Shown here piece after piece: positions 7,306 through 62,811 of a stretch of DNA of 64,000 nt; within the stretch, counting starts at the first letter, position 1, and every line of letters begins with the position of its first letter. The translations under genes and the position numbers were made by a program. The notes under the pieces are model-generated. The model had not been told where the DNA came from. It saw nothing but the letters and a program-made list of their open reading frames with translations, and searched no databases. The stretch is from Owenia fusiformis (taxonomy: Eukaryota > Annelida > Polychaeta > Sabellida > Oweniidae), in assembly GCA_903813345.2 (NCBI GenBank), contig CAIIXF020000009.1:12146030-12210029 (forward strand). Direction: 5' to 3'.

Positions 7306-10222
7306 TTAAGTATCTTGATGCATTATAAAATTAATGAATTTTTTCTTTAAAATACTATCTTTTTCTAGTGACAGATCGTTTTCAAACACTAATGCCTTAA
7401 TTCTATCATCTTGTCTCCGGGGTAACAGGTTCTCAAGGTTATGCTGCTCAAGGGACTCAATAAACTCATGTCGTCTTGTAGAAAGGCGCTGACAGTTAAA
7501 GATGAAATGCTTAGGCGTTTCACTCTCACCACATATACAAAGGTTGTCAGAAATGCCAGTAAAATTATGCGCAAATTTTTGAGATTTGAAGTAAAGACCA
7601 CATCTTATTCGGTTTAAAATGATTTCCTGTTTACGAGATAGGTTGAGTTTGGATGTGGTGTTAAAATTTTGAAAATCTTTTGTTTTCTTCCTTACCGTAG
7701 TTTTAAATATTGATATTCTGGGTATTACCCTCTCCTCTTCACTTAGTTTGTTCCATTGGTTTATTAACCTCAACACAGGGGATTTCCTTAGCCGGGCACT
7801 CGCCTTGACTGGAATTTTGAAGGGTTGGTGAGATCTGAGATCTCTAACTTGTTCATTTTTGTATTTGTCAAGAAGTTCAGTTATGTAATCAGGTGATAAG
7901 CCTCTACATATTTTATACATAATAACTAGATTTTTGTCATTTCTTCTCATTTCGAGAGTTTTCCATTTTAGGCAGTCCAGGGTTTTGAGGGTACACGAGC
8001 CGTGCAGGGCTCCTGAACAAATTTTCGCAGCTTTGTAATGAAGTTTGTCAAGTTTAGCAAGGTTTTGAAGTGTGCTACCTCCATAGATGGAGCTGCAGTA
8101 GTCCATATGAGAAAGGATATAAGCTTTATAAATAGTTTCGAGATGTTTAGAGTTAATTTTATGGCTTAGTGCTTGTAAAGGGTTGAGTTGCTTTTGAACT
8201 TTACTTGCTAGTTCATTTATATGTATATCAAACTTTAGCCTGTTGTCGAAAGTGAAGCCTAGGTGTTTGTGGAATGTTTTATAGGGAATTTGTGTCCCTT
8301 CAAAGAAAAGGGGCATGGGGTCAAAATTATCTATGTGCTTTGGTTGAAAAATCATATGCGCACTTTTTGAGGCCTTGAATTTTAAGTGCCATTTAGCAGA
8401 CCACTCTTCAAGAATGTTAAGGTCATGTTGGAGGTCAAAAGTTTGATTTAGGGCTGTGTCAAAAGAAGCATATGCTGAGGTGTCGTCAGCGTAAATGAAA
8501 CACTCAGAATTTAGATTTTGCGGAAGGTCATTTATATAAAGAAGGAACAGCAGGGGTCCAAGAACAGACCCCTGAGGGACTCCTGTGTTGATATGGCCGA
8601 TATTTGAAAATTTTGATTTTGCATCATCCACTGTAACACAGATTTTCCTTTGTGATAGATAAGATTTCAAAAGGGTCAAGGTCAGACCAGAGATTCCATA
8701 CGCTTTAAGTTTGTGTAAGAGTAGTGCATGCGGAACAGAATCAAACGCAGAGGAAATATCTAAAAAACAGGAATTAACTCCTTTGCCCTTTTCAAATTCA
8801 TTTAAAATAAAGTCAACTATAGCTGTTATTTGAAGTTCCGTGTTATGTCCAGGTAAAAACCCAGATTGCTTATGGTAAACAAGCTTCTGGTCAAAAACAT
8901 GCTCCATTAAATGGAAGTGTATAACTTTCTCTAAAATTTTGGATAGACTTTGCAGTAGTGTCACTGGTCTGTAGTTTTCAATTGTTGTTCGGTCGCTTTT
9001 TTTGAAGATTGGAATTGTATTTCCTTCCTTCCAGACGGATGGAAATTTTCCAGTTTTGAAAATCAGATTAAATAGATCAGAAAGTTTGGATGACAGTGAG
9101 GGAGATGCTAATTTGATCATATTATTAGTGATATTATCAATACCAGGGGCTTTGTCCCTTTTTAGAGTACCTATAATTAGTGCAATATTTTCTGGAGAAG
9201 TTTCAAGATTACCGATCTGTATGTGGGTTCTGTTGTCAAATTCTGGGAGATTCTGATTAAAATTTATATCAGAGTGGTATTTGGAGGAAAAAAACTTCAA
9301 AAAAAGATTAGCTTTTTCAAGGCTGGTTGACGCAATTGTATGTCCAAGTTTCAGTGAAGGGAAACCAGAGTAGAATTTTCTGTTCATAAGCTTTTGAATC
9401 AGTGTCCAGTATTTGCTACCACTGTTATTTTCAGTGGACAAGTTTTCGCAAATTTTTGAATTGTATTCATCTTTAGCTTCCGAAATTGTTTCCTGAAGTA
9501 TTCTGGCTTTCTCTTTGTAGGTATCAAAATCTGTCGGTTCTTTTGAGGTTTTGAAGCGTTCATATGCTTTTGACTTTAATCGAATCATATGTTTAATTTT
9601 ATTATTGAACCAAGGTTGATCCTTAGAACTGAAAGTTGTGATTTTGTTTGGAATTGTTTCTTCAAAAATTTTGAAAATATCTGTACAGAACGATTCTGTC
9701 AGCAGGTCAACATCATTACATTCGTTATATCTATTTTCTATATCAATTTCAAAAATCCGTCTATTTAATTCCTCAATGTTTGCTTGATCATATTTCCATG
9801 TGCGCTTTTTGGATTTTGTTTTCTTAGGTAATCTCATTGGAAACGTTAAATTCAGGGTCAAATGATCAGTACATCCGATCGGATGAGTGACTTGCACTTC
9901 TCTAACTAGATCCGGTGAGTTAGTTATAGCTAAGTCAATGCACGATCTTGAGTTTAGCTGTATTCTAGTTGGTTCATGGATAAGTTGAACTAAGTTATTA
10001 TTCATGAGGATTTCATCGAGTTTTTCCCCATTGGAATCAGTTATTCCATTAGACCACCATTTCTTGTTTTTTGAATTAAAGTCTCCATTAATTAGTAAAT
10101 AGTCACAATGAGAATGGTAGGCCTGTGCCAAGTTTTGCTCAAGTTTGTCAAAATATTCTGATTCCTGATCTCTGTTTAGATTAGGAGATTTGTAGTACAC
10201 TCCATAGAGAATTTTTATATTA
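7306..10222 (-). CDS. CR1-like ORF2, C-terminal part: endonuclease end, reverse transcriptase, Cys/His tail
   Basis: The ORF encodes the end of an apurinic/apyrimidinic-type endonuclease (INGDFNSKNK, SCIDLAITNSPDL, TDHLTLNL), then a reverse transcriptase. Visible RT blocks are YRPVTLLQSLSKILEKV, LDISSAFDSVPHALL, GVPQGSVLGPLLFLLYIND and the catalytic FIYADDTSAY near 8490. The C-terminus has the CxC...H....C pattern (LCICGESETPKHFIFNC) common in CR1/L2 elements. In CR1-type retrotransposition the endonuclease nicks DNA and the RT copies element RNA at the nick. The codon at 10200 is GTG and is not a real start: the frame continues to the Helitron junction at 10222. The stop is at 7306-7308. No frameshift or premature stop is present in this part. 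Confidence 0.9.
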
Positions 10223-12129
10223 TTAGACTCCAGATTGAAAATCTGGAGTCTATTGTTTTTGCCTGTTTTCTTATTAGACTCCAGATGTCAATCTGGAGTC
10301 TATTGTTTTTGTCAGTATTCTTCTTCTTCTTTTTATTCTTTATTATTCTTTCCCAGTTTTCTCGATAACCATAAGGCTTCCAATAAATATCATTATTCAG
10401 TCAATTTATGTCCAGTATCTAGTTCCTCGGAAATTGGGTCAAATTTTTATCTAGGTCAAAGGTCAAGAACTAGGTCAAATCTTACATTTTCAACATTCTG
10501 TCATTTATCTTCGTCGTTGTTTATCGCAACTCCTAAATCTTTTTTTCATCATGTAGCTTAGAAAAAGCCAAAGCAAAGATATGACATTAGATTTTTGATT
10601 ACGCTTACCGATTTTGAAATATGGCGTCCAGAAAGTAGGTCAAAATAAAAAATTCTCCAAATTTAACATATGAGTTATGAATTAAGGGTAGAATTTACTC
10701 AGGAATCCGAATCTGCAAATCAAATTTCGATCCGACTTCCGGTTCGAAAGTTATGGCGTTTTGAAATTTCGAGAAAAATCGATCTGATGATATCCTTATA
10801 GAAAGTCAAGAGTAGTGAAGAAAATATAGAAAAAATCATCCATCCTTCCTTCCTATGCTGTCTGATCATATCCTTTCTATCTATCCTTCCTTCCTATCCT
10901 TTCCTTCCTATCCTATCCTTCCTTCCTATTCTATATCCTATCCTATATCCTATCGTATATCCTATCCAATCCTATCCTTCTTTCCTATCCTTCCTATCCT
11001 ATCCTCCCTTCCTATCCTATACTATCCTATTGTTTCTTCCTATTCTATCCTATCCTTCCTTCCTATTCTGGAAGGAAGGATAGGATAGGAAGGAAGGATA
11101 GGATAAGAAGGATAGGAAAGAGGGATAGGACTGGACGACTTGGCTTATTCTGGACGACTCGGCTATATCTATCCCACCTATCCTATTCAATCCTATCCTT
11201 CTTTCCTATCCTTTCTATCTATCCTTCCTTCCTTCCTATCCAATCCTTCCTATTCTGTCCTATCTTATTCTTTCTTCGGATTCTATCATATCCTATTCTA
11301 TCCTTCCTATCCTATACTATCCTATCCTTTCTTCCTATTCTGTCCTATCCTTCCTATCCTATGAATTCATCCATTCATCCATCAATCCATCCATCCATCG
11401 GCTTATTCTGGATGACTCGGCTTATTCTGGATGACTCAGCCTATTCTGGATGACTTGGCTATTTTGGATGACTCGACTATAATATCCATCCCACCTATCC
11501 TTCTTTCCTATCCTTCCTATCCTATCCTACCCTTCCTATTCTGTCCTATCTTATTCTTTCTTCGGATTCTATCGTATACTATTCTATCCTTCCTATCCTA
11601 TCCTATACTATCCTATCCTTCCTATTCTATCCTATCCTTCCTCCCTATTCTGTCCTATCCTTCCTATCCTATCAATCCATCCATTCATCAATCCATCCAT
11701 CCATCCATCCATCGGCTTATTATGGATGACTCGGCTTATCTTGGATGACTCAGCTTATTCTGGATGACTTGGCTTATTCTGGAATACTCGGCTATATCCA
11801 TCCCACCTATCCTATCCAATCCTATCCTTCTTTCCTATCCTTCCTATCCTATCCTATCCTTCCTATTCTGTCCTATCTTATTCTTTCTTCGGATTCTATT
11901 GTATCCTATTCTATCCTTCATACCCTATACTATCCTATCCTTTCTTCCTATTCTATCCTATCCTTCTTTCTTATTCTATCCTATCGTTCCTTCCTATTCT
12001 ATTCTATCCTACCTTCCTATTTTATTCATCCATCTTTTTTTGGATGACTCAGCTTATTCTGGATGACTCGGCTAAAAAAGGTCTTAATCTGGAGTCTGAA
12101 ATTGAACTTGTTCAATTTCCAAAGTCTAG
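10223..12129 (+). mobile_element. Helitron-like (non-autonomous) unit 1, with polypyrimidine core
   Basis: The 5' end carries AGACTCCAGAT followed by its inverse ATCTGGAGTCT (10225-10251), and this block is duplicated at 10275-10301. The 3' end has ATCTGGAGTCT (12088-12098), a perfect 10-bp hairpin (12098-12107 with 12110-12119), a 6-nt spacer, then CTAG at 12126-12129 followed by T. A hairpin just upstream of a terminal CTRR is the Helitron 3' signature. Subterminal inverted repeats plus an internal microsatellite resemble Helentron-derived non-autonomous families. No Rep/helicase coding region is present. The exact 5' base (10220 or 10223) cannot be fixed because the target contains repeated TTA. 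Confidence 0.7.
10837..12030. repeat. (TCCTA/TCCTTCC)n polypyrimidine tract with strand switch
   Basis: About 1.2 kb of the plus strand consists mostly of C and T (TCCTATCC, TCCTTCC units), broken by short blocks containing GGATGACTCGGCTTATTCT. At about 11070-11125 the pattern flips to GGAAGGAAGGATAGGATAGG, so the preceding pyrimidine run and this purine run form a palindrome. All three forward frames are open over long stretches and encode only S/Y/P/I/L/F repeats; these are not genes. Confidence 0.85.
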
Positions 12130-12136
12130 TTATTCC

Positions 12137-12170
<34 letters not shown>

Positions 12171-13847
12171 TCCTAACAGATTTTCTCTCCAACTATAACA
12201 TCTTACTTAATCCAACCTATATGGTTGACTAGGGAATGTATCTGGCTTTCTGGGAAATTAGGTCAAATTTTTATCTAGGTCATAGGTCAAGAACTAGGTC
12301 AAATCTTGGATTTTCACTAATTCACCACTTTTCTCAGTCGTCTTTCAATATTTTCGCTCCGGGTTTTTTTCATCATGTACCTATGACAAAAAGCTAATTC
12401 CGAAAGGCAAATCGTTTTTTGATTACTCTTACCGATTTTGAGATATTGCGTCCGAAAAGTAGGTCAGAACAAAAAGTTCTCCAAATTCAAGGTGTGAGTT
12501 ATGAAATATATGTAGAATCTTCCAAGGAATCCGAATCTGCAAACCAAATGTCAATCCGACTTTCGGTTCGGAAGTTATTGCGTTTTGAAAGCTCAAAAAT
12601 CGCTAAATTTGGTGCCTATGTTAAGTCAATGGGAAAAAAGACTTTTTCGAAGTGTAAAATACAAGATATAGACCAAGTGCAGCTTAACATAATGAATGCT
12701 TATAAAAGAAGGCGACCTCAAAAGCTACATAGCTTCAAAATTTGGACACCAAAATGCCTAGGTCAAAATCTAGGTCAAATTCATAGTTTTTCCTTATTTT
12801 TAGGATTCTGACACTACACTTTAATAATTTACTTCAAAATTTTGTATACAGGTAGCAAAGAGTGTGCTAATAGTGTTAGCCTTTTGCCGTCAGAAAGTAT
12901 TTTGACCCACTTTTGAGATATGGTGTCCGAAAAGTAGGTCAAAATAAAAAGTTCTCCAGATTCAACGAATGAGATATGAATTAAGGGTAGAATCTTCTCA
13001 GGAATCCGAATCTGCAAACCAAATTTCGATCCGACTTCCGGTTCGGAAGTAATGGCGTGTCCAAAAAGTAGGTCAAAATAAAAAAATTCTTAATTTAACG
13101 TATGAGTTATGAATTAGGGGTAGAATTTTGTCAGGAATCCGAATCTGCAAACCAAATTTCGATCCGACTTCCGGTTCGAAAGTTATGGCGTTTTGAAAGC
13201 TCAAAAATCGCTAAATTTGGTGCCTCATATTATGTCAATGAGAAAAAGGATTTTTTGAAGTGTAAAATACCAGATATAGACTGAGTACAGCTTAATATTC
13301 TGAAAGCCTATAAAAGGAGGGGACCTCGAAGGCTATCTAGCTTTAAAATTTGGACGCAAAAATGCCTTGGTCAAAATCTAGGTCAAATTCATAGTTTTTC
13401 CTTATTTTTGTGATTCTGACATTACACTTAAAGGATTTGCTTCAAAATTTTGTATACAGGTAGCAAAGAGTGTGCTTATAGTGTTAGTCTTCTGCCGTCA
13501 GAAAGTTTTTTGACCCACTTTTGAGATATGGTGTCCGAAATGTAGGTCAAAATAAAAAATTCTCCAAATTTAACGTATGAGTTATGAATTAAGGGTAGAA
13601 TTTTCTCAGGAATCAGAATCTTTAAACCAAATTTCGAGCGGTTTGGAGTCTCGAAAAGTCGATATGATGATATCCCCATGTTAAGCTAATAGAGTCGAAG
13701 ATAGCCTTCTTAAAATTGTCTAAATGTCTATATTCTAGCTGACTCAGCTTATTCTGAATGACTCAGCTTACAAGTTCTGGATAACTCAGCTTAAAAAAGT
13801 TTGAAATCTGGAGTCTTAAATTGAACTTGTTCAATTTACATGTCTAG
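12130..13847 (+). mobile_element. Helitron-like unit 2, tandem to unit 1
   Basis: From about 12135 the sequence again follows the 5' region of unit 1: a pyrimidine-rich start, then GGGAAATTAGGTCAAATTT, a direct AGGTCA pair, TTTTTTTCATCATGTA and the GATTAC...TTACCGATTTTGA block. It ends like unit 1: ATCTGGAGTCT (13806-13816), a 10-bp perfect hairpin (13817-13826 with 13829-13838), then CTAG at 13844-13847 followed by TTATG of the LINE. The outer hairpin pair is T-A here but G-C in unit 1, a compensatory change. Inside, a block of roughly 150-200 bp starting TTTTGAGATATGGTGTCCGA recurs about three times. No protein-coding gene is present. Confidence 0.65.
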
Positions 13848-14725
13848 TTATGTTTAATTTCAATCCAAATGCAGTCACTGGTATCAAGATCATGTCTGGG
13901 TACAATTATAAATTCACGCCTAACATATATAAGCAATCCTCTATTTTTTGAGCTATATATTGGGGGATGGAAGTGATCCCCCAATGAGTAGTGGTTATTG
14001 ATATTATCTAGGGTTTGATTTCCTGCCTCGCAGATTCCCACTACACTTATATTGTTTGACATAACTCTATTTTTTAGAGTTTCAAATCTGGCCCCGTGTG
14101 CTGCACTGATGCTGTTTATATTGGAAAACAGAAATTGTAACTCATGTAAAGTTTCATTTGGACCCGGATTTCTCTCTACTCCACCAACTGTCACCAAAAT
14201 GAAGGTTAGGTCAGGTTCAAACGCTAGTTGGAGAAAATGAATAAGACCCGTGCCCAGCAGGACTAACCTTAACTGCATAATGCAAAGTTTCATATTAAAT
14301 TTGATACGTAATATGACTAGGGTATAGTACAAGGTATATCCTAATAAGATTGAAGTCAAAAATACACTGTTAATAATCACAATATAGATGAGAGTCCAGT
14401 GTATGATGTGGCTTAGCCATAGAAAAATGTTGGTTAAAATATCTTGGTCAAAATTTATTACCACATAGGTGATTATGAGAAGCAGTTGAATAAGTCTTAA
14501 CCACATTGTGGTAAGAGTTAACTTGTTCCTATATCTATATGAAATACCTTTAGAAACGTGTTTGTTCGAACTTGAAAGGTTGAAGCGACCAATACTGCAG
14601 CGCCAAATTTCTAGCTCTACGCCTATGTTACACCGTTCTCTCCCTTGAAGAGCATAACCTTCAGCAACCCGGAATAACGACTGAAAACAAGAGGTGAAGT
14701 GATTAGTAAGGGTGTTTTGGGCCAA
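13848..14725 (-). CDS. CR1-like ORF2, N-terminal part with hydrophobic segments and 2A-like motif
   Basis: Minus-strand frame interrupted at its 3' side by the Helitron-like insertion. The first ATG in frame is at 14506 (MWLRLIQ); the frame is open upstream of it, to a TTG at 14725. Hydrophobic stretches follow (IQLLLIITYVVI; HWTLIYIVIINSVFLTSILL; TLYYTLVILRI; LVLLGTGLIHFLQLAF), then TVGGVERNPGP ending at 14159. This matches the 2A StopGo C-terminal consensus D(V/I)ExNPGP except Gly replaces Asp. After it comes the endonuclease start (FLFSNINSI, ISVVGICEAGN, RGLLIYVR, DCIWIEIK). 2A-like sequences at ORF2 N-termini are known in CR1/L2/Rex1 elements. Whether this D-to-G variant is active is unknown. 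Confidence 0.8.
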
Positions 14726-14829
14726 TAAGTGTTTGATGTGTTTAAATTTCTTCTATTTTGGGGCAGAGATGTGGCAAAAACCAGGATTTCTATCACTACT
14801 ATTGCATTATCCATGTCAATTGATCAGGA

Positions 14830-17240: not shown

Positions 17241-17484
17241 TTAATTTCCCATTGACACTAAAGTTCACGCGTGGGTCATATCGGAATATGGACATCAACA
17301 TAGTATTTGCATTCATTTCATATAGCCAGGCGAAGAAAAGTTCAAATAACCATCTGCTTCATATAGACAATAACAAACAACTTGACAGCAGGCAAGAAAC
17401 AATATTACATGTATATAAGATCAACTACAAAATAGACGCTATATATTCTTATCAGACTCGTGTTATAAAACATAAGGACTGAAC

Positions 17485-18897
17485 ATGCAAAGATATATTT
17501 CCTTGTTTGTGGGAATATTGTGCACCTTTTTAGCAGGAGTCTTGTATTGTTTCAATACATATGCAATCGCATTGAAAGCTACATTCAACTACACACAAAT
17601 AGATCTGGAGCATATCTTTATTAGTGCGGACGTTGGTCAAAGTGTTTGCCTCCCCGCCGGATTTATATTTGATAAATTTGGACCTAGAATTGCCAGTTTC
17701 TTTGGCTTGATTTTTACTGGATCTGGATTTACACTACTATGGATGACTACAAAGTTCGAAATATTTTTCGCAACTAATGCATGGTTGAGTTGTATTATAT
17801 ATTTATTTACACTATTTGGAACAACATTTTCTTTTGTTGCAGCTATAAGTGTAAACTCGGGGAATTTTGAAAAGAAATATAGAGGTGTAATACTAGGGAT
17901 TCTCTCCGCGGTATTTGGGGTAGCTGCGACAATATACAGCGCCATCTATCAAGGTTTCTTTGTACAAGACCACATAGAAGATGGTAAGAATCAGAAATAT
18001 GGAGATTTTATGCTGTTCCTAGCCGTCCTGTCTGTGATCATTAATTTGTTAGCGATAGGCCTGCTTAAGGAAATTCCAGTTGATAAAATATATGATACAA
18101 ATGAAAGTAATGAATTAAACGATCTCTTCAAAACATGCGAAGAAAGCAAAGTTACTGAAAACGAAACGAATGCAGTGGAAAGTGGAAATGAGAAGAATAC
18201 ATTGATTCCAAATGACATCATTCCATGTCCACCAAATTTGAATGCCTGGCAAATCATAAAAACGGTGCAATTTTATTACCTTTTTACGATAACTTGTGTT
18301 TTAGGGGGTTCTTGTGCTACGTATGTTAACAATATTTCGACTGTCTTGAAATCCATTAATAGAGAGAATGACATTGTAGTCTTTACAATCAGCCTTCCAA
18401 TTTTCAATTTAATAGGAAAATTAATCAGTTCTTGGGGCTTCAATTATATTTGTCTAAAATGGCCGAACATTCCAAGATCATTGAGTCTTTTACATTGTTC
18501 AATTTCAACGTTTATCGGTCTACTTGTCATGATTTTCTTCTACCATGAATTTGTTGGCTTATTCATCAGCACGATTATGATAAGTTTTGCCTTTGGGTCA
18601 TTTTATGTACAAATACAATGGGTCTTCATGGAATTATTTGGCTTAAAGTACATTGGACAAATCCTTGGCCTCGTATTTCTGGCTCATAGTCTTGGGATGT
18701 TTGGACTCCAAGAATTGTTTGGCTTTAGTTACGAGTTGAATAGCCCGATAGGATCCAATGAGTGTTATGGTGAAGCTTGCTCAAAGGGATCGTTTGTTTT
18801 ACTTGCAATTTTATGCTTTTGTGCATTGTTTCTTAATGTTTGTTTGATTATAATTGAAAGAGATGACATTCTGAAGCGCAAAGAAAACCTTAAATGA
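17485..18897 (+). CDS. major facilitator superfamily transporter, nodulin-like, 470 aa
   Basis: A single uninterrupted frame from ATG 17485 to TGA encodes a protein with about 12 hydrophobic segments. Between the second and third is an MFS motif-A-like loop (GFIFDKFGPR, about residues 60-69). NSGNFEKKYRGVILGILSAVFG (about residues 123-144) resembles the Nodulin-like domain signature (N-x-GNF...RG...GI) shared with plant NFD4-like and related fungal and animal transporters. A hydrophilic central loop (about residues 195-250, rich in E, N, K) separates the two six-helix halves, as in MFS proteins. It is probably an integral membrane solute carrier; the substrate cannot be read from the sequence. 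The first Met lies at the start of the first hydrophobic segment. No intron is needed, which is unusual beside the multi-exon neighbours. An SLC43-like assignment is an alternative. Confidence 0.8.
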   Translation: MQRYISLFVGILCTFLAGVLYCFNTYAIALKATFNYTQIDLEHIFISADVGQSVCLPAGFIFDKFGPRIASFFGLIFTGSGFTLLWMTTKFEIFFATNAWLSCIIYLFTLFGTTFSFVAAISVNSGNFEKKYRGVILGILSAVFGVAATIYSAIYQGFFVQDHIEDGKNQKYGDFMLFLAVLSVIINLLAIGLLKEIPVDKIYDTNESNELNDLFKTCEESKVTENETNAVESGNEKNTLIPNDIIPCPPNLNAWQIIKTVQFYYLFTITCVLGGSCATYVNNISTVLKSINRENDIVVFTISLPIFNLIGKLISSWGFNYICLKWPNIPRSLSLLHCSISTFIGLLVMIFFYHEFVGLFISTIMISFAFGSFYVQIQWVFMELFGLKYIGQILGLVFLAHSLGMFGLQELFGFSYELNSPIGSNECYGEACSKGSFVLLAILCFCALFLNVCLIIIERDDILKRKENLK

Positions 18898-46680: not shown

Positions 46681-47091
46681 CGAACTCCCGTGCAGTGATA
46701 TTATCACTGCGGCGGGCAGGTATCTCACCGTAAGCATGGTAACATCGTAATAAACAACTGACGTGATTGGTTCTAGCCCCATGCTCAGGTCGCGTGATTG
46801 TAAAGTTTAGACAATTTCATTGGTTGAATTGCGCGTATTAACTAATAAACAACACGTATCAACACAACTTTTACTCAGAATTCCTCCGCGGAGATTTCCT
46901 CTTATTTTTCATTGATTTTGGAATATTTTGACAAAATAATTATTGGTGAACATAAAACAACATATATTTTATAAGTTGTGTGAAAAACAAGTACATCTGT
47001 GACAAAAAGGGGGGACTATCTTCCCCAAATTTTGGGGATTCCATAATCTGCCCGCCGCAGTGTCTATACCGAGACACTGCATAGGAGTTCG
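46681..47091. mobile_element. about 410-bp element with 40-44-bp GC-rich inverted ends
   Basis: Left end 46681-46719 and right end 47048-47091 are inverted copies sharing CTGCCCGCCGCAGTG and GGAGTTCG. Each end also contains its own small hairpin (GCAGTGATATTATCACTGC on the left; GCAGTGTC with GAGACACTGC on the right). No ORF. Probably a non-autonomous DNA element. Confidence 0.55.
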
Positions 47092-47139
47092 GGGAGTTCG
47101 GAAAACAACCAAATGGATTTACTTTCACACATGTTACAT

Positions 47140-49145
47140 TGTTATCACATTTTATTGACAAATACCATAATAATTATAATCATGGAAATGAACCATTTAT
47201 TCCAAGAACCGATTTAACATTTGACCTGCTCTCTACCAATGACAGAGAAGTCTATAACATTCTACTCGGCTTAAATATTAATAAAGCCACTGGCCCTGAC
47301 ATGTTGAGTAATAGAATGCTAAAAATGGCAGCACCATCACTTTCACCTATTTTATCAAAACTGCTTAACAAAATGTTTACTTTGAATCAATATCCTCAAC
47401 TATGGAAGGTCGGTCATATTGTAGCTATTCATAAAAACAAAGATAAAACAGATGTGAAAAATTATCGCCCAATAACACTCCTGTCTTGTATTTCTAAAGT
47501 CGCCGAGCGCATTATTTTTAAAAGACTCTTTGATCATTTCATTTCTAACAATTTATTTTACAATCTTCAAAGTGGTTTCCTGCCAGGACATAGCACACAG
47601 GCACAACTTTTAAGTATTATTGACCACATAACAAATGAAATTGAAAATGGGGCTAATGTAAGAGGGATATATCTTGATATTTCGGCTGCATTTGATTCAA
47701 TGCCCCATGGGCTACTATTAGGAAAATTGAAAATGTTTGGTTTTGGTCCGAATATCCTGGAATTGATGAAATCATATTTACTACACAGACAAGTGAAGGT
47801 GGTATTAGATGGTCATGAGTCAAACTTATCTGAAAAGGGTTATATCAATTCTGGAGTTCCTCAAGGCTCGATCCTGGGGCCCCTCTTATTTTTGATCTAT
47901 ATCAATGATTTACCTGACAATTTGAATTCAAAATGTTTCATCTACGCAGATGATACCTCAATTTACCAGTCATTCACAGCTGAAACAGCAACTGAAATGA
48001 ACAATGCCCTACAGGAGGATCTCAACCATATTTTTCAATGGTCTGAAGTATGGAAATTAAATTTTAAAGCTTCTAAAAGCAAAGATTTGACCTTTACCAA
48101 TCCAAAGAAACGTGAAATTTTGACCATAGATCTTTCTCTCGGAAACGACATTATACCAAGAGTAAACAGCCATAAGCACTTAGGCTTAATCCTAGACAGA
48201 AATCTCACTTTTGACCTTCACATAACTGAACTTGGTGCAAGAATAGACAAACTTTTAAATCCACTGAAAGCGCTCTGTCAGAAAATAAATGGAAAACATC
48301 TCGAAACAATCTTTAAATCTTTTATCCTGCCACTTTTTGACTATGGTGATATTTTATATGGGTGTGCAAACACAACAAAATTACAGTTATTAGATCGACT
48401 TTACTATAAAGCCGCTTGCATTTGTTCAGGTACTCTGTAACATGGGACTTCGACAATTAAAGTGTTGAATAATTTAAATTGGCCAACATTAACAAAGAGG
48501 CGTCAATATCACAGAAGCATTTTCATGTATAGGGCACATAATAATATGCAGCCCTCTTATGTTCTTAACATATTTGAGCCTCTCAAAAGAAACCATGCTT
48601 ATGGTCTAAGAAATCAACTGAGCTACACAATTCCTAATAAATCCTCATTTTCTAATAGATCTTGCATATCAAAAACACTGACTGAATGGAATAAGCTTTC
48701 ACCTGAAATAAGAAATTTACCTACCCTTAGTATATTCAAATCCAGACTTAAAATAGATCTATTCAATGACGATGTTACAAATTCATCAGAACTCTCCGTT
48801 TCAAGAAAACAAGAAATAATTTTCAATAGAGTGCGCTGTGATCTCATTTTTAAGGCTCACCTTTACGCTCACAATTTCACTTATATAAACTCCCCCATTT
48901 GCCAGTGTGGAATGGATGGTGAAACAACCAATCACGTAATTTTTCACTGTAATCTAAGATCAACATTTTGGACAGAATTTGAAAATGAATTAAAAAATAT
49001 GAACATAGAATATTCTACTAAATATAGATCACAACGAGACAAACTCTCCCTTATCCTCAATGGCGATAAAAGGCTACCTAAAGCTGTAAACTTAAATATC
49101 CTCAAATGTAGTGCCATCTTTTTTGAACGATGTAAAAATGTCTAG
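47140..49145 (+). pseudogene. CR1-like reverse transcriptase with one in-frame stop
   Basis: Nearly intact RT and tail domain: ATGPDMLSNRMLK, NYRPITLLSCISKVAERI, GIYLDISAAFDSMPHGLL, SGVPQGSILGPLLFLIYIND, catalytic CFIYADDTSIY near 47937-47970, then SHKHLGLILDRNLTFDLHI and the C-terminal knuckle ICQCGMDGETTNHVIFHC. The only break is TAA at 48438-48440, between CSGTL and HGTSTIK. The other copies here read SGALHGS and SGAMHGT, so TAA is an extra codon rather than a substitution. Translation to the left begins at a TTG that is only the truncation point. The copy cannot retrotranspose without the endonuclease. Confidence 0.85.
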
Positions 49146-56596: not shown

Positions 56597-56879
56597 ATTG
56601 AGGTGGATATTTGGCTAAAACTTTAAGAAATTCTGATATTTTCAAAATTTTAGCTTTGTGTTGCCAGGATAAAGAAAAGCTAAGATTTGCAGTGACGCAG
56701 CTTGGTATCTAAAAAAGGACGAACTAAGGATTATGTTTATTTTATTTGACGTTATGTTATGGGTAAAAATATATTTAAACATAATCTAATATTTTTTTAC
56801 AAGATGATAACGATGAATCAATATATGTTTTGAAATAATATAAATTATAAAAATACGAAACAATCCCACAAACCTTAAA
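56597..56879. promoter_or_regulatory. head-to-head intergenic region, probable bidirectional promoter
   Basis: Only 283 bp separate the start codons of the CCDC166-like gene (minus) and LSM11 (plus), so both promoters and 5' UTRs must lie here. No TATA box at a standard position stands out. GTTGCCAGG at 56660 matches only one half of an RFX X-box, which would suit a ciliary gene, but the second half is poor. Transcription start sites cannot be placed. Confidence 0.5.
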
Positions 56880-59800
56880 ATGGCGGCGCCCATAAAAAAC
56901 GAAAAAAATCGAGCTTCCGCTCTAAATGAGAAAGAACATTTACAGGATCCAAGTATCAGTGATCTTAGTGTGTCGAAAGATATGTGTACTAAATATGCAC
57001 AATCTGAAGAGAGTATTATGGGAGGAAATACAGAGGAAAGACCCGAAAATAGCTCTTCAAAAATTCCCGCCTTGGAATTTCATTTCAAATCAAAAGAAAA
57101 CGTCAAAGATAAACGTCGACATGTACATCCAGTGGAATTTGAAGAACATAGGAGTGTTAGAAATGTCCTAACTAGAATGGAAGGTACAAATCAATTTCAA
57201 CAAAAAATGTAACATTTTTAATTTGTTCACAACATAAACATTCAAGCCAGCATGGGCATTCAATAGAAATTGAAAGCAGATGAAGCCAGGTATAACATGA
57301 AGGCATAGGCACCGGGAACATTTATAAAAAAATTGAGGTAATACACATGTCGACTCGATTTTTTTATACATGTTCCCGGGGCCTATGTATAAAAGCGAGT
57401 TGTAATTGTGCCAAGTTGTCCAAGTTCAATTGCATATGGAATCATGGGCTCTACCACCCATGATGGAATCAAACCCAGAACCCTCCCCTTTGAAATTAAA
57501 GTCTGGCGCTCTACCGCTCGAATCAAAGGAGTTATCAGTGGCGTAACCAAGAAGAATAAAGCGACGGGGCGAAAAATATTTCCAAACCGGTTCAAAAAAG
57601 TGATGAGGCAAGCATCTTGTGTGCCTCATCCTGGCTTAAGGTGGCCTATAATGCTGCTTATTTTTTCGTGAAGCCACTCAGTAAAATTATGATTTCTCTG
57701 CAACCTGATGTTCAATCAACATCATTCGAGTATCTACATGTATGTGTTCCTGACACGTTTTTATTTTTATTTTCCAGATGCCAATGAAAGGAAGGGTCCT
57801 TTAAGCTTGTTGTATCGATGTGTCAAAGAGCGCCTGAAAGTTAGAGTTGTAACACGCAGTTACAGACATGTCCGAGGAGTATGTATCGGCTATATTGTAG
57901 CCTTCGATAAGCATTGGAATTTGGTAAGAAGCTTAAACAAGATACATGTATATTTTCTGTTGAATACAATATAACACAGGCTTTGTCTTGGAAGCACTCT
58001 GCCAATGATATTTATCTCAGTACTTGCTTTCTTGCATGTAAATTATGCACATGTACATTACATATTTGTTTGTCATTTATCAATTATGTTACATCAGTGT
58101 TGAATATTATGATATCCATCATAACATCAATAAATATGACTGTCAATTTAGAGAGTCTAGTTATTCATATTTTATATAATGAAGTCCTCAGTTTAATAAC
58201 GCTTGAATAAGAAAAAACATTAATTAGTTCAGCCAATTACAATTTTGTCAAATTGTAATATCCGCAAAATGTTCAAAGATGGAGAGGAAACTTGATCATC
58301 TACAGTAGTTATGAAAAATGGTACAAAAAACAAATAAAAATCAGAATGAAATCACAAGAAACCCTGTGTAACGCAAATATTGAAAATAATACAATTATAT
58401 AACTATGTATATAACAATGTAACTTTGAGTTGTTTTGCATAGAATGTTTATTGTATATTAGGCTACAGGCCATGCTAGATGTTGATGAAACCCCATGCGA
58501 TTCACATATTAAAAATAATATATAACTTTGAGTTGTTTTGCATATCATTTTTATTGTATATTACAGGCCATGCTAGATGTTGATGAGACTTACATGAAAC
58601 CTCTTGCCCTTACACAGAACAGCAGAATGAAAAGATGGAAGAAAAAGAATAAGGTAACAATCAGCTATATGGGCAAAATGCTGACTGTACTCTTACCGAC
58701 TTCATATATACATTTAGATTGATAAAAATATGGCATCGGTAGCAGGCCCGTAGCCAGGATTTGCCAAGGGGGGTGTTCAGTTTTCAAAAATTTCCAGGGG
58801 GGGTTCACATTTGACAATTTTGGCCCAAATATTGCTAAAATCAGAAGTGCTCAAAATGGTGAAAAACTGCATGATTTTGAAAGAATTTTTGGCCAGGGGG
58901 GGGGGTTAGCCCGAACCCTGCGAATCCCCCCTGGCTACGGGCCTGGGTAGTTCTGGTTAAAGGCAGGGCTCCACTATAAAAGCAGAAAGTCAGTTAGAAA
59001 ATGATGTAATATCGCTTTTGAAAATTTAGATGTCCACAGAATCTGACACCCCAGACCTGTTTTCCCACATATCTGTAGTATTTTTGCATAGAATCTAGCT
59101 AAACTTTGTCATGGTTAATTATAAATATATTCTGAATCTGATGGTTACAAGTTTTAAATTTAAATAGAAGATGTAGTTCCTATCTGGCTTGAAATATGTA
59201 ATATAATATATAAAACTGTTATAGCAGTTATATAATAGGCTGCATCAAAATATGGTTGTGGTTTAATTTACCATATGGTAAGGAATCCACTATACTGTTA
59301 TCTGGAGAAAGTGACAATAGTCATTTTATTAGTTAATTTATCAGTTTAGTTTATTTATTTATTATTTTATAGTGGTCAGTCTTACAATTTAACAAATATG
59401 AAAAATCAGCAAAATCATATATTTCCAATTGAATTCATGTTAAATTCCATCGTCATATAACTAAAAGAGTTTGTCTGTTTGATTTGGCATTTTTGGGTGT
59501 GGAAAATGGAAAATGATTATATTTGCTAAGCTGAAACATTACCACACTGGTTAGAATATTAATTGGTACCTTCTAAAACCTCTTTAAAACTGCATTCAAC
59601 TTTAATTCAAATGCTTTAATTATGGTTCATGGCTTCACAGTACAACTGACCTACCAATCTATTCCTTATGATCTCAAATACACTGAATGTATTCCAAAAG
59701 ATCTGTGATATGTTATAAATTGGTGAAATTAATAAGGATTAAAAGTGCAAAAAATTGGAAAAAGTGTTTAAATTATCCCAAATATTAAAAATAACCATAA

Positions 59801-62800
59801 AAATAGAATAATAATGCATTATTGTAAAAATACTTACTTTTCCTGGAATGAATTATTACACATTTTTAGTAAATAGACACGACAAGGAATGATATGAGCC
59901 AAAAATTCAAACAAATTTTGTTTAGCCAGCTCACTAGATCTGATTTCCTTTTTAAGTTGTTCATTATTCCACACTTTTGAACTGCATGTATCTCTAATGA
60001 TGCACTTTTTGCACATTGTTAAACAGTTTACATTAATTATCATTGTAAGGAAAATTCCACATGATAACAATGTAAGTAGAGCAAAGATCAAATACTTCAC
60101 TTTATTTTCAGAAAAAACCTGGTCAACAACAAGCACCTGGTAGTGACATGAAAACTGCTGAATCTGATATTAACGAACAGCTGGCTAATATTAGTATTAA
60201 CAATGATGCTGGTTCTGGTAATAATACCCTGAAAACTGACACTGCCAAAGAGATTGATTCCAATTGTAGTGAGGCCATAGTTACTTGTGAGGATGCAAAT
60301 TCTAACAAAACCAAAACTGATGTATTAAAAATTAAAAACAATATAGAAGTTGTGGATCCACAAGGTGGCAAAGCAAATGAACAATTTGGAGGTAAAAACG
60401 AATGTAATGTCAATGATAATGATAATGAACAGGCTACAATTGAAAATGAGCCTATTGAAATTGATGAGACTGAACTGAACGTAAAGAGAATGGATGGACT
60501 TCAAACTGATAACAACTCAGATGTGAAATGTCTCACAAATGAAACTCCTTTCAAACCTCCAAATGTCTCCAATGAGATAAATTTGGATTACAATGAAGTC
60601 AGTCTAGATTATAATGACCTGAGCTTAGATAATGATCACGACCCTTTTGTTAAAAAGAAGTTTCATCCACACAATAATGATAAGGTTATGCAGCTTGATG
60701 GACATGTTGAAGTGAGTAGTGATGAGGATGATGACAACAATGATGATGACTCTAATAGGGACAACAGCTCAAGTGATGACAATGATGAGACAAGTGATGA
60801 TACTGACAGTGACAATGATAATATAGAAGATGAAATTGATGTAGGAGATATTGATGGAAATGAAGCTGAAATTGAACAAGAAAAAACGGTTGCAGAAGAT
60901 AATGAGAAAATCAGTAATTATGACACTAAAAATGATAATGTTAAAGAGCCTGAAACAGCTGAAAGTGATGATGGTGAAATTACAGATAGTGACATTGAAA
61001 TAGAATTAGAAGTCCCCGATATGGCTGAGGAAGAGGGTGAAAATATCACTGATTTACACACTGAGCGTGACATCCTACAACAACAATTAGATGGACTTAG
61101 TGAGGGAGAAATTCCAAGCTCTGATGATGGAGAAATAGTGGAAGATGACGAAGTCAAACATGAGAAGATAAAAGATAAATCTCATAAGAAAAAAAGACAT
61201 AAAGATAAACATAAAAAACATTCTGAGGGAAAACATAGAGAATATTCAAAAGATGATTATGAAAGAAGTAAACACTTGAAAGATAGGCATGCAACACGGA
61301 AACACTCAAAAGAAGATAAGGAGAAACGAAGTAGATCAAAACATTCCACAGATAAAGAGGACAAACATCACAAATCTAAACATAAGGATGATGATGGAAA
61401 GCATAGAGACAAGTCAAAAACAAAATCTAAACACCACAAATCAAGCCAAGGTGAAGCTAGCAAAAGACAGTCTGAAGAGTTTGATTTAAGGTCTAAACTT
61501 GAAGCTCTTAAAAAGTCCAAAATATCTGGAGGACTTAGGCCTAGACCTCCCTCACCATACATGAGTAGATCTAAATCTCCAACTAGTGGCAGACCAAGAT
61601 CTCCAAGAACACTTCATTCACCAACTAGTTTTAGGCCACAGTCTCCATTTGAAAGACATTCATATTCCCCTGAAAGGAGGCCTCCATCTCCACATGATGG
61701 GAGACCTGAATTTAGATCTCGATCCCCTGGAAGATCTAGAACACCTCCACTGAGGAGGCCAATATCTCCCCATAGAAATAGAGCAAGGTCTCCACCAAGA
61801 ATAAGATCCAGAACTCCACCACCTAGGTCAAGAGCAAGATCTCCAGATAGACCTAGATCTCCAGGTAGACCTAGATCTCCACTTGACAGAAGGTTGAGAT
61901 CCCCTGAAAATAGACCAAGATCACCTCGTGGGAAAAGACCTAGAACCCCTGGGCGACCTAGAACTCCAGAGAGACCAAGAACCCCTGAGCGACCTAGAAC
62001 TCCTCGTGGAATAAGATCCAGGACTCCAGAGAGACCAAAGTCTCCAAGGATACCAAGAACTAAAGATAGAAACATGTCTGAAAGACCATTACATGATAAA
62101 ATGAGAGCAAAATCACCTAAAAGGAGATCAAAATTATCTAGGAGGAGATCAAAATCACCTAAGAGATCAAAATCACCTAGGAGAAGATCAAAATCACCTA
62201 AGAGATCAAAATCACCTAAGAGATCAAAATCACCTAGGAGGAGATCAAAATCACCTAAGAGATCAAAATCACCTAGGAGGAGATCAAAGTCACCTAAGAG
62301 GAGATCAAAATCACCTAGGAGGAGATCAAAATCACCTAAGAGGAGATCAAAATCACCTAGGAGGAGATCAAAATCACCTAAGAGGAGATCACAATCACCT
62401 AGGAGGAGATCTAAATCACCTACGAGATCAAAATCACCTAGGAGATCACAATCACCTAAAACCAGATCTGAATCATCAAACAGAAAATCTAAAGTTAATG
62501 AGAGAGTATCTTCAAAAGATGAAAATAATTTAAAAACTAAACTTAAGGACCAAAGTTCTTTTGTATCAGTTGATCAACAGGATCTAGATTCAAAAAGAAA
62601 ATCAAGGCCAAGCTCTAGAGAAGGACAAGAATTGAAAAATAAGAATATTGATATTGGTGCTGTTGCCATGGATACCACTGAGGATGTCCCAGAATGTGGT
62701 TACTACGGCGATGCTACAATAGAAATGCAATCCAATGTTGTTTTACGTCATGTTAATCAGCTTTTCCTGCGCGGAGACAATGTGGTGCTTGTTTCAATAA

Positions 62801-62811
62801 TTACTTACTAG
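56880..62811 (+). CDS. LSM11: LSM11, U7 snRNP Sm-like protein, four exons, about 1078 aa
   Basis: Exons: 56880-57183, 57778-57923, 58567-58653, 60112-62811; GT..AG junctions and phases agree and the sum is 3237 nt. Residues 102-160 carry Sm1 (KERLKVRVVTRSYRHVRGVC, GYIVAFDKHWNL, MLDVDETYMKP). The extreme C-terminus (about 1053-1075) carries Sm2 (VVLRHVNQLFLRGDNVVLV). LSM11 replaces an SmD protein in the U7 snRNP ring that processes replication-dependent histone pre-mRNA 3' ends in the nucleus. A long Sm1-Sm2 spacer is a known family trait, but here it is about 890 residues: acidic D/E/N/S-rich (about 375-490), KH-rich (about 525-625), RSP/RTP repeats (about 655-835), then RSKSPKR repeats (about 845-965). 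Human LSM11 is about 360 residues. The N-terminal region carries NVLTRM as in vertebrates. Confidence 0.9.
57304..57387. repeat. 30-bp near-perfect hairpin, 24-nt loop
   Basis: Arms 57304-57333 and 57358-57387 differ at two positions (CATAGGCACCGGGAACATTT and inverse of the right arm). The folded length of 84 nt is pre-miRNA-sized, but a short palindromic repeat is equally possible. It lies in LSM11 intron 1. Confidence 0.7.
57455..57535 (-). mobile_element. tRNA-derived SINE-like head
   Basis: On the minus strand, CGAGCGGTAGAGCGCC (about 57505-57520) matches a pol III A box and GGGTTTGATTCC (57464-57475) a B box, with tRNA-like spacing. The acceptor and anticodon arms do not form a clean tRNA, so this is a tRNA-related SINE remnant rather than a functional tRNA. 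It lies in LSM11 intron 1. Confidence 0.5.
58423..58490 (+). pseudogene. duplicated acceptor and start of LSM11 exon 3 (decoy exon)
   Basis: AACTTTGAGTTGTTTTGCAT, TTTATTGTATATTA, ACAG and GCCATGCTAGATGTTGATGA occur here and again about 100 bp downstream at the true exon 3 (58567). The copy holds a usable AG acceptor and seven codons identical to exon 3 before diverging. It then reads into an in-frame TAA without a donor site. If used, it would truncate LSM11 inside the Sm1 region. Confidence 0.8.
58743..58945. mobile_element. 203-bp MITE with CAG-type TIRs (hAT-like)
   Basis: Perfect 16-bp TIR CAGGCCCGTAGCCAGG at 58743 and inverted ending at 58945. GGTAG flanks both sides (58738-58742, 58946-58950). 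Termini beginning CAGG(G/C)..GTAGCCAGG are common in hAT-derived MITEs, whose duplications are normally 8 bp; only 5 bp match here. Subterminal G-runs and C-runs. It lies in LSM11 intron 3. Confidence 0.8.
58980..60111. other. LSM11 intron 3 remainder, nothing recognised
   Basis: AT-rich intronic sequence with no supported exon or classified repeat, ending in the TTTATTTTCAG acceptor at 60111. Confidence 0.55.
62104..62470 (+). repeat. in-frame coding repeat encoding RSKSP units
   Basis: Alternating 18- and 21-bp units (AGATCAAAATCACCTAAG and AGGAGATCAAAATCACCTAGG minus or plus one codon) encode about 18-20 RSKSP motifs joined by KR, RR or K. The units are nearly identical at synonymous sites, indicating recent expansion. 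An older degenerate RSP/RTP repeat precedes them from about 61540. Confidence 0.9.

What the first reader, a model, noticed from the sequence alone, without database searches (positions are those of the whole stretch)
60112..62811. LSM11 Sm fold split by an about 890-residue SR-like spacer
The sequence shows Sm1 in exons 2-3 and Sm2 at the very end of exon 4, with acidic, KH-rich and RSP/KSP repeat blocks between them in one uninterrupted frame. Family knowledge: LSM11 has a spacer between Sm1 and Sm2, but human LSM11 totals only about 360 residues. Inference: the spacer has become an SR/KSP phospho-domain inside a snRNP core protein. It could link histone pre-mRNA processing to splicing kinases, CDKs or condensate behaviour in this lineage.
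Basis: partly seen in the sequence, partly recalled or inferred. Interest (0 to 1): 0.75.

Follow-up and report, generated by a model that had tools for sequence, protein, structure and literature searches.

The report
LSM11 with giant SR-like loop
A core protein of the machine that trims histone messenger RNAs carries, in this animal, a loop about seven times longer than in humans, which looks like a splicing-factor tail and contains short motifs that may plug it into the RNA cap-binding machinery; the gene looks real, the function is untested.

Summary
A four-exon gene (56880-62811, +) encodes a 1078-aa protein whose only strongly significant match among solved structures is human U7 snRNP subunit LSm11 (Sm1 region E 4.7e-20; the 22-residue Sm2 stretch also ranks LSm11 first, but weakly, E 0.021). 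An open spacer of 889 aa, nearly all in one exon (human loop: 131 aa), separates Sm1 from Sm2: acidic/Asn, Lys-His, RSP/RTP and a young 21-bp KSP array. No second copy of the Sm1 region or of the spacer parts searched was found. The best in-frame internal splice pair is no better than chance.

The genome's ARS2 keeps the three lysines that bind such motifs in human. LSM10 and SLBP are present. The N-terminal extension lacks the vertebrate CPSF73-contact pattern.

Best reading: a genuine LSM11 whose loop became a disordered, phosphorylatable arm, probably docking ARS2/cap-binding complex and nuclear bodies. It is a new variant of a known kind; the ARS2 link is post hoc inference. No orthologues or transcripts could be examined.

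The parts
56880..57183 (+). Exon 1: N-terminal extension (aa 1-89) and start of the LSm11-like stretch (VRNVLTRM), ahead of the Sm fold proper
   Evidence: frame and GT donor; alignment to human LSm11 starts at aa 90
57778..57923 (+). Exon 2: first part of Sm1
58567..58653 (+). Exon 3: end of Sm1 (MLDVDETYMKP) and basic linker
60112..62811 (+). Exon 4: nearly all of the spacer, and Sm2, stop codon included
60130..61164 (+). Acidic/Asn-rich block, aa 186-530
60967..60981 (+). ARS2-recruitment-type motif DDGEI (aa 465-469)
61099..61113 (+). Relaxed motif SEGEI (aa 509-513) in DGLSEGEIPSSDD, 7 of 13 identical to the human FLASH FARB peptide
   Evidence: FARB from PMC5923425
61123..61137 (+). ARS2-recruitment-type motif DDGEI (aa 517-521)
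61165..61494 (+). Lys-His-rich basic block, aa 531-640
61495..62100 (+). RSP/RTP block, aa 641-842 (16 SP, 7 TP)
62103..62458 (+). 21-bp tandem array, 17.8 copies, coding KSPRRRSKSPKR-type repeats
   Evidence: codon spelling nearly uniform, 14 of 15 KSP units alike
62737..62808 (+). Sm2 motif, aa 1055-1078

Best explanation
This is the animal's LSM11 gene, the only copy found. SHOWN: Sm1 and Sm2 sequences of LSM11, separated by an uninterrupted 889-aa coding spacer of low hydropathy and alternating charge, with two strict and one relaxed ARS2-recruitment motifs; the genome also encodes LSM10, SLBP and an ARS2 with the motif-binding lysines. INFERRED: Sm1 and Sm2 pair into one Sm fold in the U7 ring with LSM10, the spacer leaving the ring as the disordered beta3-beta4 loop, as the shorter loop of human LSm11 does. 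The loop grew from the ordinary LSM11 loop by accretion of low-complexity sequence and lastly by 21-bp slippage. It works as a flexible arm: the acidic motifs dock ARS2 and through it the cap-binding complex on nascent histone transcripts (a job that FLASH does in human cells), while the Lys-His and RSP/KSP blocks, phosphorylated by SR-type and proline-directed kinases, set nuclear-body residence and S-phase control.
For: LSM11 identity. Gene model and coding potential: (uneven base use by codon position in five of five blocks; stop-free over 899 codons). Copy number: the Sm1 region gives only its own two exons at E up to 10; aa 180-278 and about 377-853 of the spacer give only themselves at E up to 0.001. 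LSM10 present, E 4e-15; SLBP present, E 2.7e-13. Motifs: 2 strict [ED][ED]GE[ILV], the only 2 in six frames of the window; 2 or more in 0.036% of 100,000 shuffles of aa 370-540. Motif definition: PMC9402713 (passages), ELM class LIG_ARS2_EDGEI_1 in PMC10767929 (passages). Human FLASH binds ARS2 by DELEEGEIRSDSE, and ARS2 K719A/K722A/K734A does not bind (PMC5923425, passages). The genome's ARS2 exon aligns without gaps to human ARS2 and has lysines at 3 of 3 places with the spacing of 719/722/734 (my numbering; same peptide in both copies). The human ring assembles with the loop removed (PMC7026596, passages). Spacer blocks fall on the disordered side of the charge-hydropathy line.
Against: No transcript, protein or orthologue was seen. 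The motif was recognised after looking, so the shuffle figures are optimistic; the 7-of-13 match to FARB is reached in 756 of 20,000 shuffles, about 4%, weak by itself, and the two strict motifs match FARB at only 4 and 5 of 13. DGEI-type strings can be expected now and then in acidic regions of nuclear proteins. Sm2 scores only E 0.021. The single-sequence AlphaFold model was useless (mean pLDDT 33.8), so pairing of Sm1 with Sm2 was not tested. The N-terminal extension is short (89 aa) and shows neither alignment to human LSm11 nor the CPSF73-contact pattern, so U7 function rests on homology of the Sm parts. U7 snRNA was not found (inconclusive; pattern 35 hits against 20 in the control). The KSP part is young and nearly uniform at DNA level, as drift by slippage would give.
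Confidence: 0.5

Rival explanations
1. Neutral low-complexity growth: LSM11 is real and works as usual, and its loop has simply swollen by slippage and biased substitution into generic SR-like, charged sequence with no new function; the GEI strings are incidental.
For: The human loop can be removed without loss of ring assembly (PMC7026596) or of methylosome binding (PMC10578488). The KSP part is a young 21-bp array with almost no synonymous divergence (14 of 15 KSP units spelled alike).
Against: The frame is kept over 899 codons. The RSP/RTP block repeats the motif with 10 different codon spellings in 15 units, so the peptide outlasts the DNA repeat, though picking units by peptide makes this partly circular. 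The order acidic-GEI / Lys-His / RSP recalls ARS2- and splicing-linked nuclear proteins such as PRPF4B (from memory).
Confidence: 0.33
2. Exitron: exon 4 holds an optional intron, and the main product is a short LSM11 of ordinary size; the long form is minor.
For: Splicing out 60392-62569 would be in frame and leave 352 aa, close to human 360; the internal donor at 60712 scores 8.0, above the three real donors.
Against: Internal acceptors (best 7.2) score below the three real ones (8.8, 11.1, 12.6), and in-frame pairs as good as the best arise in 211 of 300 random sequences.
Confidence: 0.1
3. Misassembly or fusion: the spacer belongs to a neighbouring or foreign SR-type gene joined to LSM11 by error.
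For: None found; tandem repeats can collapse or expand in assemblies.
Against: The spacer is continuous in one frame with Sm2 within a single exon, lies deep in a 38.9-Mb contig, and the parts searched have no second copy (the KSP array itself was not searched). The exact repeat number may still be wrong.
Confidence: 0.03
4. Paralogue: a duplicated LSM11 that left U7 and became an SR-type factor, with the true LSM11 elsewhere.
For: The N-terminal extension lacks recognisable FLASH/CPSF73 contact sequence.
Against: The Sm1 region finds only its own two exons in the assembly at E up to 10 (gaps and withheld stretches could hide a copy); LSM10 and SLBP are present.
Confidence: 0.04

Closest known systems
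Human LSm11 (U7 snRNP subunit; PDB 6v4x, 8g1u, 9nh5)
   Same: Sm1 (E 4.7e-20) and Sm2 order, loop between the two, N-terminal extension before Sm1
   Different: Loop 889 aa instead of 131; acidic/Lys-His/RSP/KSP make-up; N-terminal extension 89 aa without detectable similarity
Human FLASH (CASP8AP2) FARB segment
   Same: EGEI-type acidic motif that binds the ARS2 C-terminal leg; same pathway (PMC5923425)
   Different: In human the motif sits on FLASH, here on the Sm-ring subunit itself; no overall homology shown
ARS2-recruitment-motif proteins (ZFC3H1, ZC3H18, ZC3H4, NCBP3, PRPF4B, THRAP3)
   Same: One to three motif copies in disordered regions (PMC9402713); SR-type sequence nearby in PRPF4B and THRAP3 (recalled)
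   Different: None of those named is an Sm-ring protein
SR-related splicing proteins (SRRM1/2 type; recalled)
   Same: Dense RSP/KSP repeats
   Different: Pfam finds only the LSM domain here; repeats sit inside an Sm fold, not in a terminal tail

Membership tests
LSM11 | Sm1 motif most similar to LSm11 among Sm/LSm proteins | tested here: met
   LSm11 4.7e-20, next SmD2 0.01
LSM11 | Sm2 motif at the C-terminus, separated from Sm1 by a long loop | tested here: met
   LSm11 first, E 0.021 (weak, 22 residues); position
LSM11 | N-terminal extension that binds FLASH | tested here: inconclusive
   89-aa extension present; no alignment to human; a FLASH-contact pattern recalled from memory has no + strand match in the window and two minus-strand matches elsewhere
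LSM11 | N-terminal helix contacting CPSF73 (RIxRLRxL pattern, derived from the mutated residues in PMC12774660) | tested here: not met
   no match in the protein or in the + frames of 10 kb upstream; best window 3 of 6 positions. The paper calls it conserved among vertebrates, so it is not a defining feature of the whole family
LSM11 | Pairs with LSM10 in a U7 snRNP | not testable with these tools
   LSM10 gene present; complex not testable
ARS2-recruitment-motif (LIG_ARS2_EDGEI) proteins | [ED][ED]GE[ILV] in a disordered region | tested here: met
   2 strict copies at aa 465 and 517; acidic block disordered by charge-hydropathy
ARS2-recruitment-motif (LIG_ARS2_EDGEI) proteins | Binding partner with motif-binding lysines in the same genome | tested here: met
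ARS2-recruitment-motif (LIG_ARS2_EDGEI) proteins | Direct binding to ARS2 | not tested
   needs protein
SR proteins (strict sense) | RRM domain plus C-terminal RS domain | tested here: not met
   only the LSM domain found at E up to 1

The most novel reading that the evidence does not exclude
In this lineage the cap-side docking of histone pre-mRNA processing has moved from FLASH onto the U7 ring: LSM11's loop carries a FARB-like ARS2-recruitment cluster together with an SR/KSP phospho-domain, so that one ring subunit joins the Sm core, cap-binding complex/ARS2 and phospho-controlled nuclear bodies. The only FLASH/YARP-type SANT gene found above cut-off (C10) shows no coding motif of this kind on its strand in the 30 kb examined, and LSM11's N-terminal extension lacks the vertebrate contact sequences, which would fit such a rewiring but does not show it; that gene may be YARP rather than FLASH.
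Probability: 0.2. Interest if true: 0.75.

Novelty: new variant of a known kind. Interest (0 to 1): 0.5.

Why it matters
Sm-ring proteins are among the most conserved proteins of eukaryotes (general knowledge). A ring subunit whose fold is interrupted by nearly 900 residues of SR-like, ARS2-motif-bearing sequence would show that the snRNP core can take on regulatory scaffold functions, and would make testable how cap recognition, histone 3'-end cleavage and cell-cycle kinases are joined, a job that in human cells is spread over FLASH, NPAT and ARS2.

Tried and rejected
Origin of the spacer by capture from another gene: no second copy of aa 180-278 or about 377-853 at E up to 0.001; the rest, with the KSP array, was not searched, and low complexity or divergence could hide a donor. 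A paralogous short LSM11: none at E up to 10. An upstream exon with the FLASH-contact segment: a pattern recalled from memory gave no + strand hit in the window. Exitron: best in-frame pair no better than chance. Structure: AlphaFold2 of the single sequence gave mean pLDDT 33.8, not used; no fold search was run. U7 snRNA: the Rfam model gave nothing and rang in no control genome; the pattern search was not enriched enough to pick a gene (35 against 20). FLASH: one PF21227 gene on C10 above cut-off, its domain matching human FLASH (1.8e-9) and mouse Gon4l (1e-8) about equally, so its identity is open; on its strand in 30 kb neither an EGEI-type motif in an open frame nor an LDLY-type string was seen. 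Baits from Gon4l and FLASH found the same place only. A second PF21227 hit on C9 (E 0.0765) is below cut-off, and 20 kb before it showed no such motif. Papers: nine searches, whose listings are capped; none of the titles or abstract starts listed reports an SR-type or ARS2-motif-bearing LSM11 loop. The library holds open-licence papers only. I read passages of nine papers (PMC7026596, PMC10767929, PMC10720265, PMC9402713, PMC12774660, PMC5636114, PMC7432317, PMC5923425, PMC10578488), none whole.

Full report
WHAT IS THERE. Four exons on the + strand (56880-57183, 57778-57923, 58567-58653, 60112-62811) with GT/AG introns join to a protein of 1078 aa that starts MAAP and ends ...LRHVNQLFLRGDNVVLVSIITY; an in-frame stop lies 36 bases upstream of the ATG (the frame opens at 56844). 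Against the solved structures, residues 1-376 match human LSm11 best (aa 90-175, E 4.7e-20; the next other protein is SmD2 at 0.01), and the last 63 residues, searched alone, again rank LSm11 first, at E 0.021 over 22 residues. Pfam gives the LSM domain only (E 1.5e-6). The Sm1 region finds only its own two exons in the genome at E up to 10.

THE SPACER. From the end of Sm1 (aa 165) to Sm2 (aa 1055) there are 889 residues, all but the first 14 in exon 4. Human LSm11 has a 131-residue loop, 207-337, between strands beta3 and beta4 (PMC10578488, passages); cut at the residues that align with human 207 and 337 the loop here would be about 894. The order is: acidic/Asn-rich (aa 186-530, net charge -0.23 per residue), Lys-His-rich (531-640), RSP/RTP (641-842; 16 SP, 7 TP), KSP array (843-962; 17 SP, +0.52 per residue), and a mixed linker (963-1050). 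All five fall on the disordered side of the charge-hydropathy line, as does the N-terminal extension; the Sm1 region (narrowly, 0.47 against 0.45) and Sm2 fall on the folded side. Tandem Repeats Finder sees a 21-bp array, 17.8 copies, at 62103-62458.

IS IT CODING? The last exon has no stop in 899 codons where its composition predicts 7.1% stops, about 2e-29 by chance; the other two + frames hold stops in each of five blocks; base use differs by codon position in each. The minus-strand 319-aa frame under the repeats is taken as a by-product of the repeats. The KSP units are spelled almost alike (14 of 15), a recent expansion; the RSP/RTP units have 10 spellings in 15. Internal splice sites: best acceptor 7.2 against 8.8, 11.1 and 12.6 for the real ones; one internal donor (60712) scores 8.0, above the three real donors; in-frame pairs as good as the best occur in 211 of 300 random sequences. 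One pair, 60392-62569, would leave 352 aa, so a short isoform cannot be excluded.

The acidic block carries DDGEI at aa 465 and 517 and SEGEI at aa 509. The relaxed motif [ED][ED]GE[ILV] for ARS2 binding is from PMC9402713 (passages), and ELM lists it as LIG_ARS2_EDGEI_1 (PMC10767929, passages). Human FLASH binds ARS2 through DELEEGEIRSDSE, and ARS2 K719A/K722A/K734A loses it (PMC5923425, passages); ZFC3H1 and ZC3H18 compete through similar motifs (PMC10720265, passages). The strict motif occurs twice in six frames of the window, both times here. Two or more arise in 0.036% of 100,000 shuffles of aa 370-540; three of the form with Ser allowed first in none, but that form was chosen after seeing the sequence. 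The context DGLSEGEIPSSDD matches the FLASH peptide at 7 of 13; 756 of 20,000 shuffles have a stretch that matches as well, and the two strict motifs match at 4 and 5 of 13, so that resemblance alone is weak.

PARTNERS. The genome's ARS2 lies on contig C2, with a copy on C483 that is about 95% identical in DNA over the two next-longest aligned stretches and 88% over the longest, probably the other haplotype. Its zinc-finger exon aligns without gaps to human ARS2 (E 2e-24). The only spacing of human lysines that fits 719/722/734 in that stretch falls on three lysines kept here; this numbering is my deduction from the alignment. LSM10 is present (E 4e-15), as is SLBP. A PF21227 SANT gene on C10 is FLASH- or YARP-like; on its strand in 30 kb one EGEI-type match was seen, in a frame full of stops, and no LDLY-type string. 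Whether it is FLASH is open, and its 5' end was not defined.

N-TERMINUS. The 89-aa extension does not align to human LSm11 and lacks the RIxRLRxL pattern of the CPSF73-contact helix (residues from PMC12774660, passages, described there as conserved among vertebrates). FLASH and Lsm11 N-termini form a 2:1 complex in human (PMC5636114, passages). Either these contacts have diverged beyond recognition here or they are made differently.

HOW IT PROBABLY WORKS. Shown: sequence identity, anatomy, motifs, partners' genes. Inferred from established knowledge: Sm1 and Sm2 close one Sm fold in the U7 ring, and the loop leaves the ring, since the human ring assembles with the loop removed (PMC7026596, passages). 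Inferred further: the acidic motifs dock ARS2 and the cap-binding complex; the basic and RSP/KSP blocks serve nuclear-body retention and kinase control. I put about 0.5 on the whole of this, about 0.97 on LSM11 identity, and about 0.2 on the bold version in which ARS2 docking has moved from FLASH to LSM11. The strongest rival is neutral growth of the loop (0.33).

LIMITS. The motif finding is post hoc. Nothing here tests phosphorylation, binding or localisation.

Noticed in passing
L012 (G000:C1:14042760-14045951), ORF 1450-2082: LSM10 also has a long tail here: a 210-aa frame from its ATG against 123 aa in the human chain, with a repetitive Gln/Met/Ala/Lys-rich C-terminal part. Both U7-specific ring subunits may have grown.
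   Followed up: partly
window 13847-14752 (-): Open frame with GGVERNPGP, a 2A-like self-processing string (motif recalled), just before a stretch that looks like the endonuclease of a non-LTR retrotransposon (by eye).
   Followed up: no
window 7309-10287 (-), 47085-49142 (+): Long reverse-transcriptase-like frames of LINE-type elements, 993 aa and 451+234 aa (by eye).
   Followed up: no
window 17476-18894 (+): A 473-aa open frame that looks like a major-facilitator-type membrane transporter (by eye, no family search).
   Followed up: no
L002/L004 (C2) and L003/L005 (C483): ARS2 occurs twice, about 95% identical in DNA over two aligned stretches and 88% over the longest, with the same zinc-finger exon peptide: probably an unmerged haplotype.
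   Followed up: partly
window 10866-12229 (+): Long repetitive C/T-rich stretch open in several frames.
   Followed up: no
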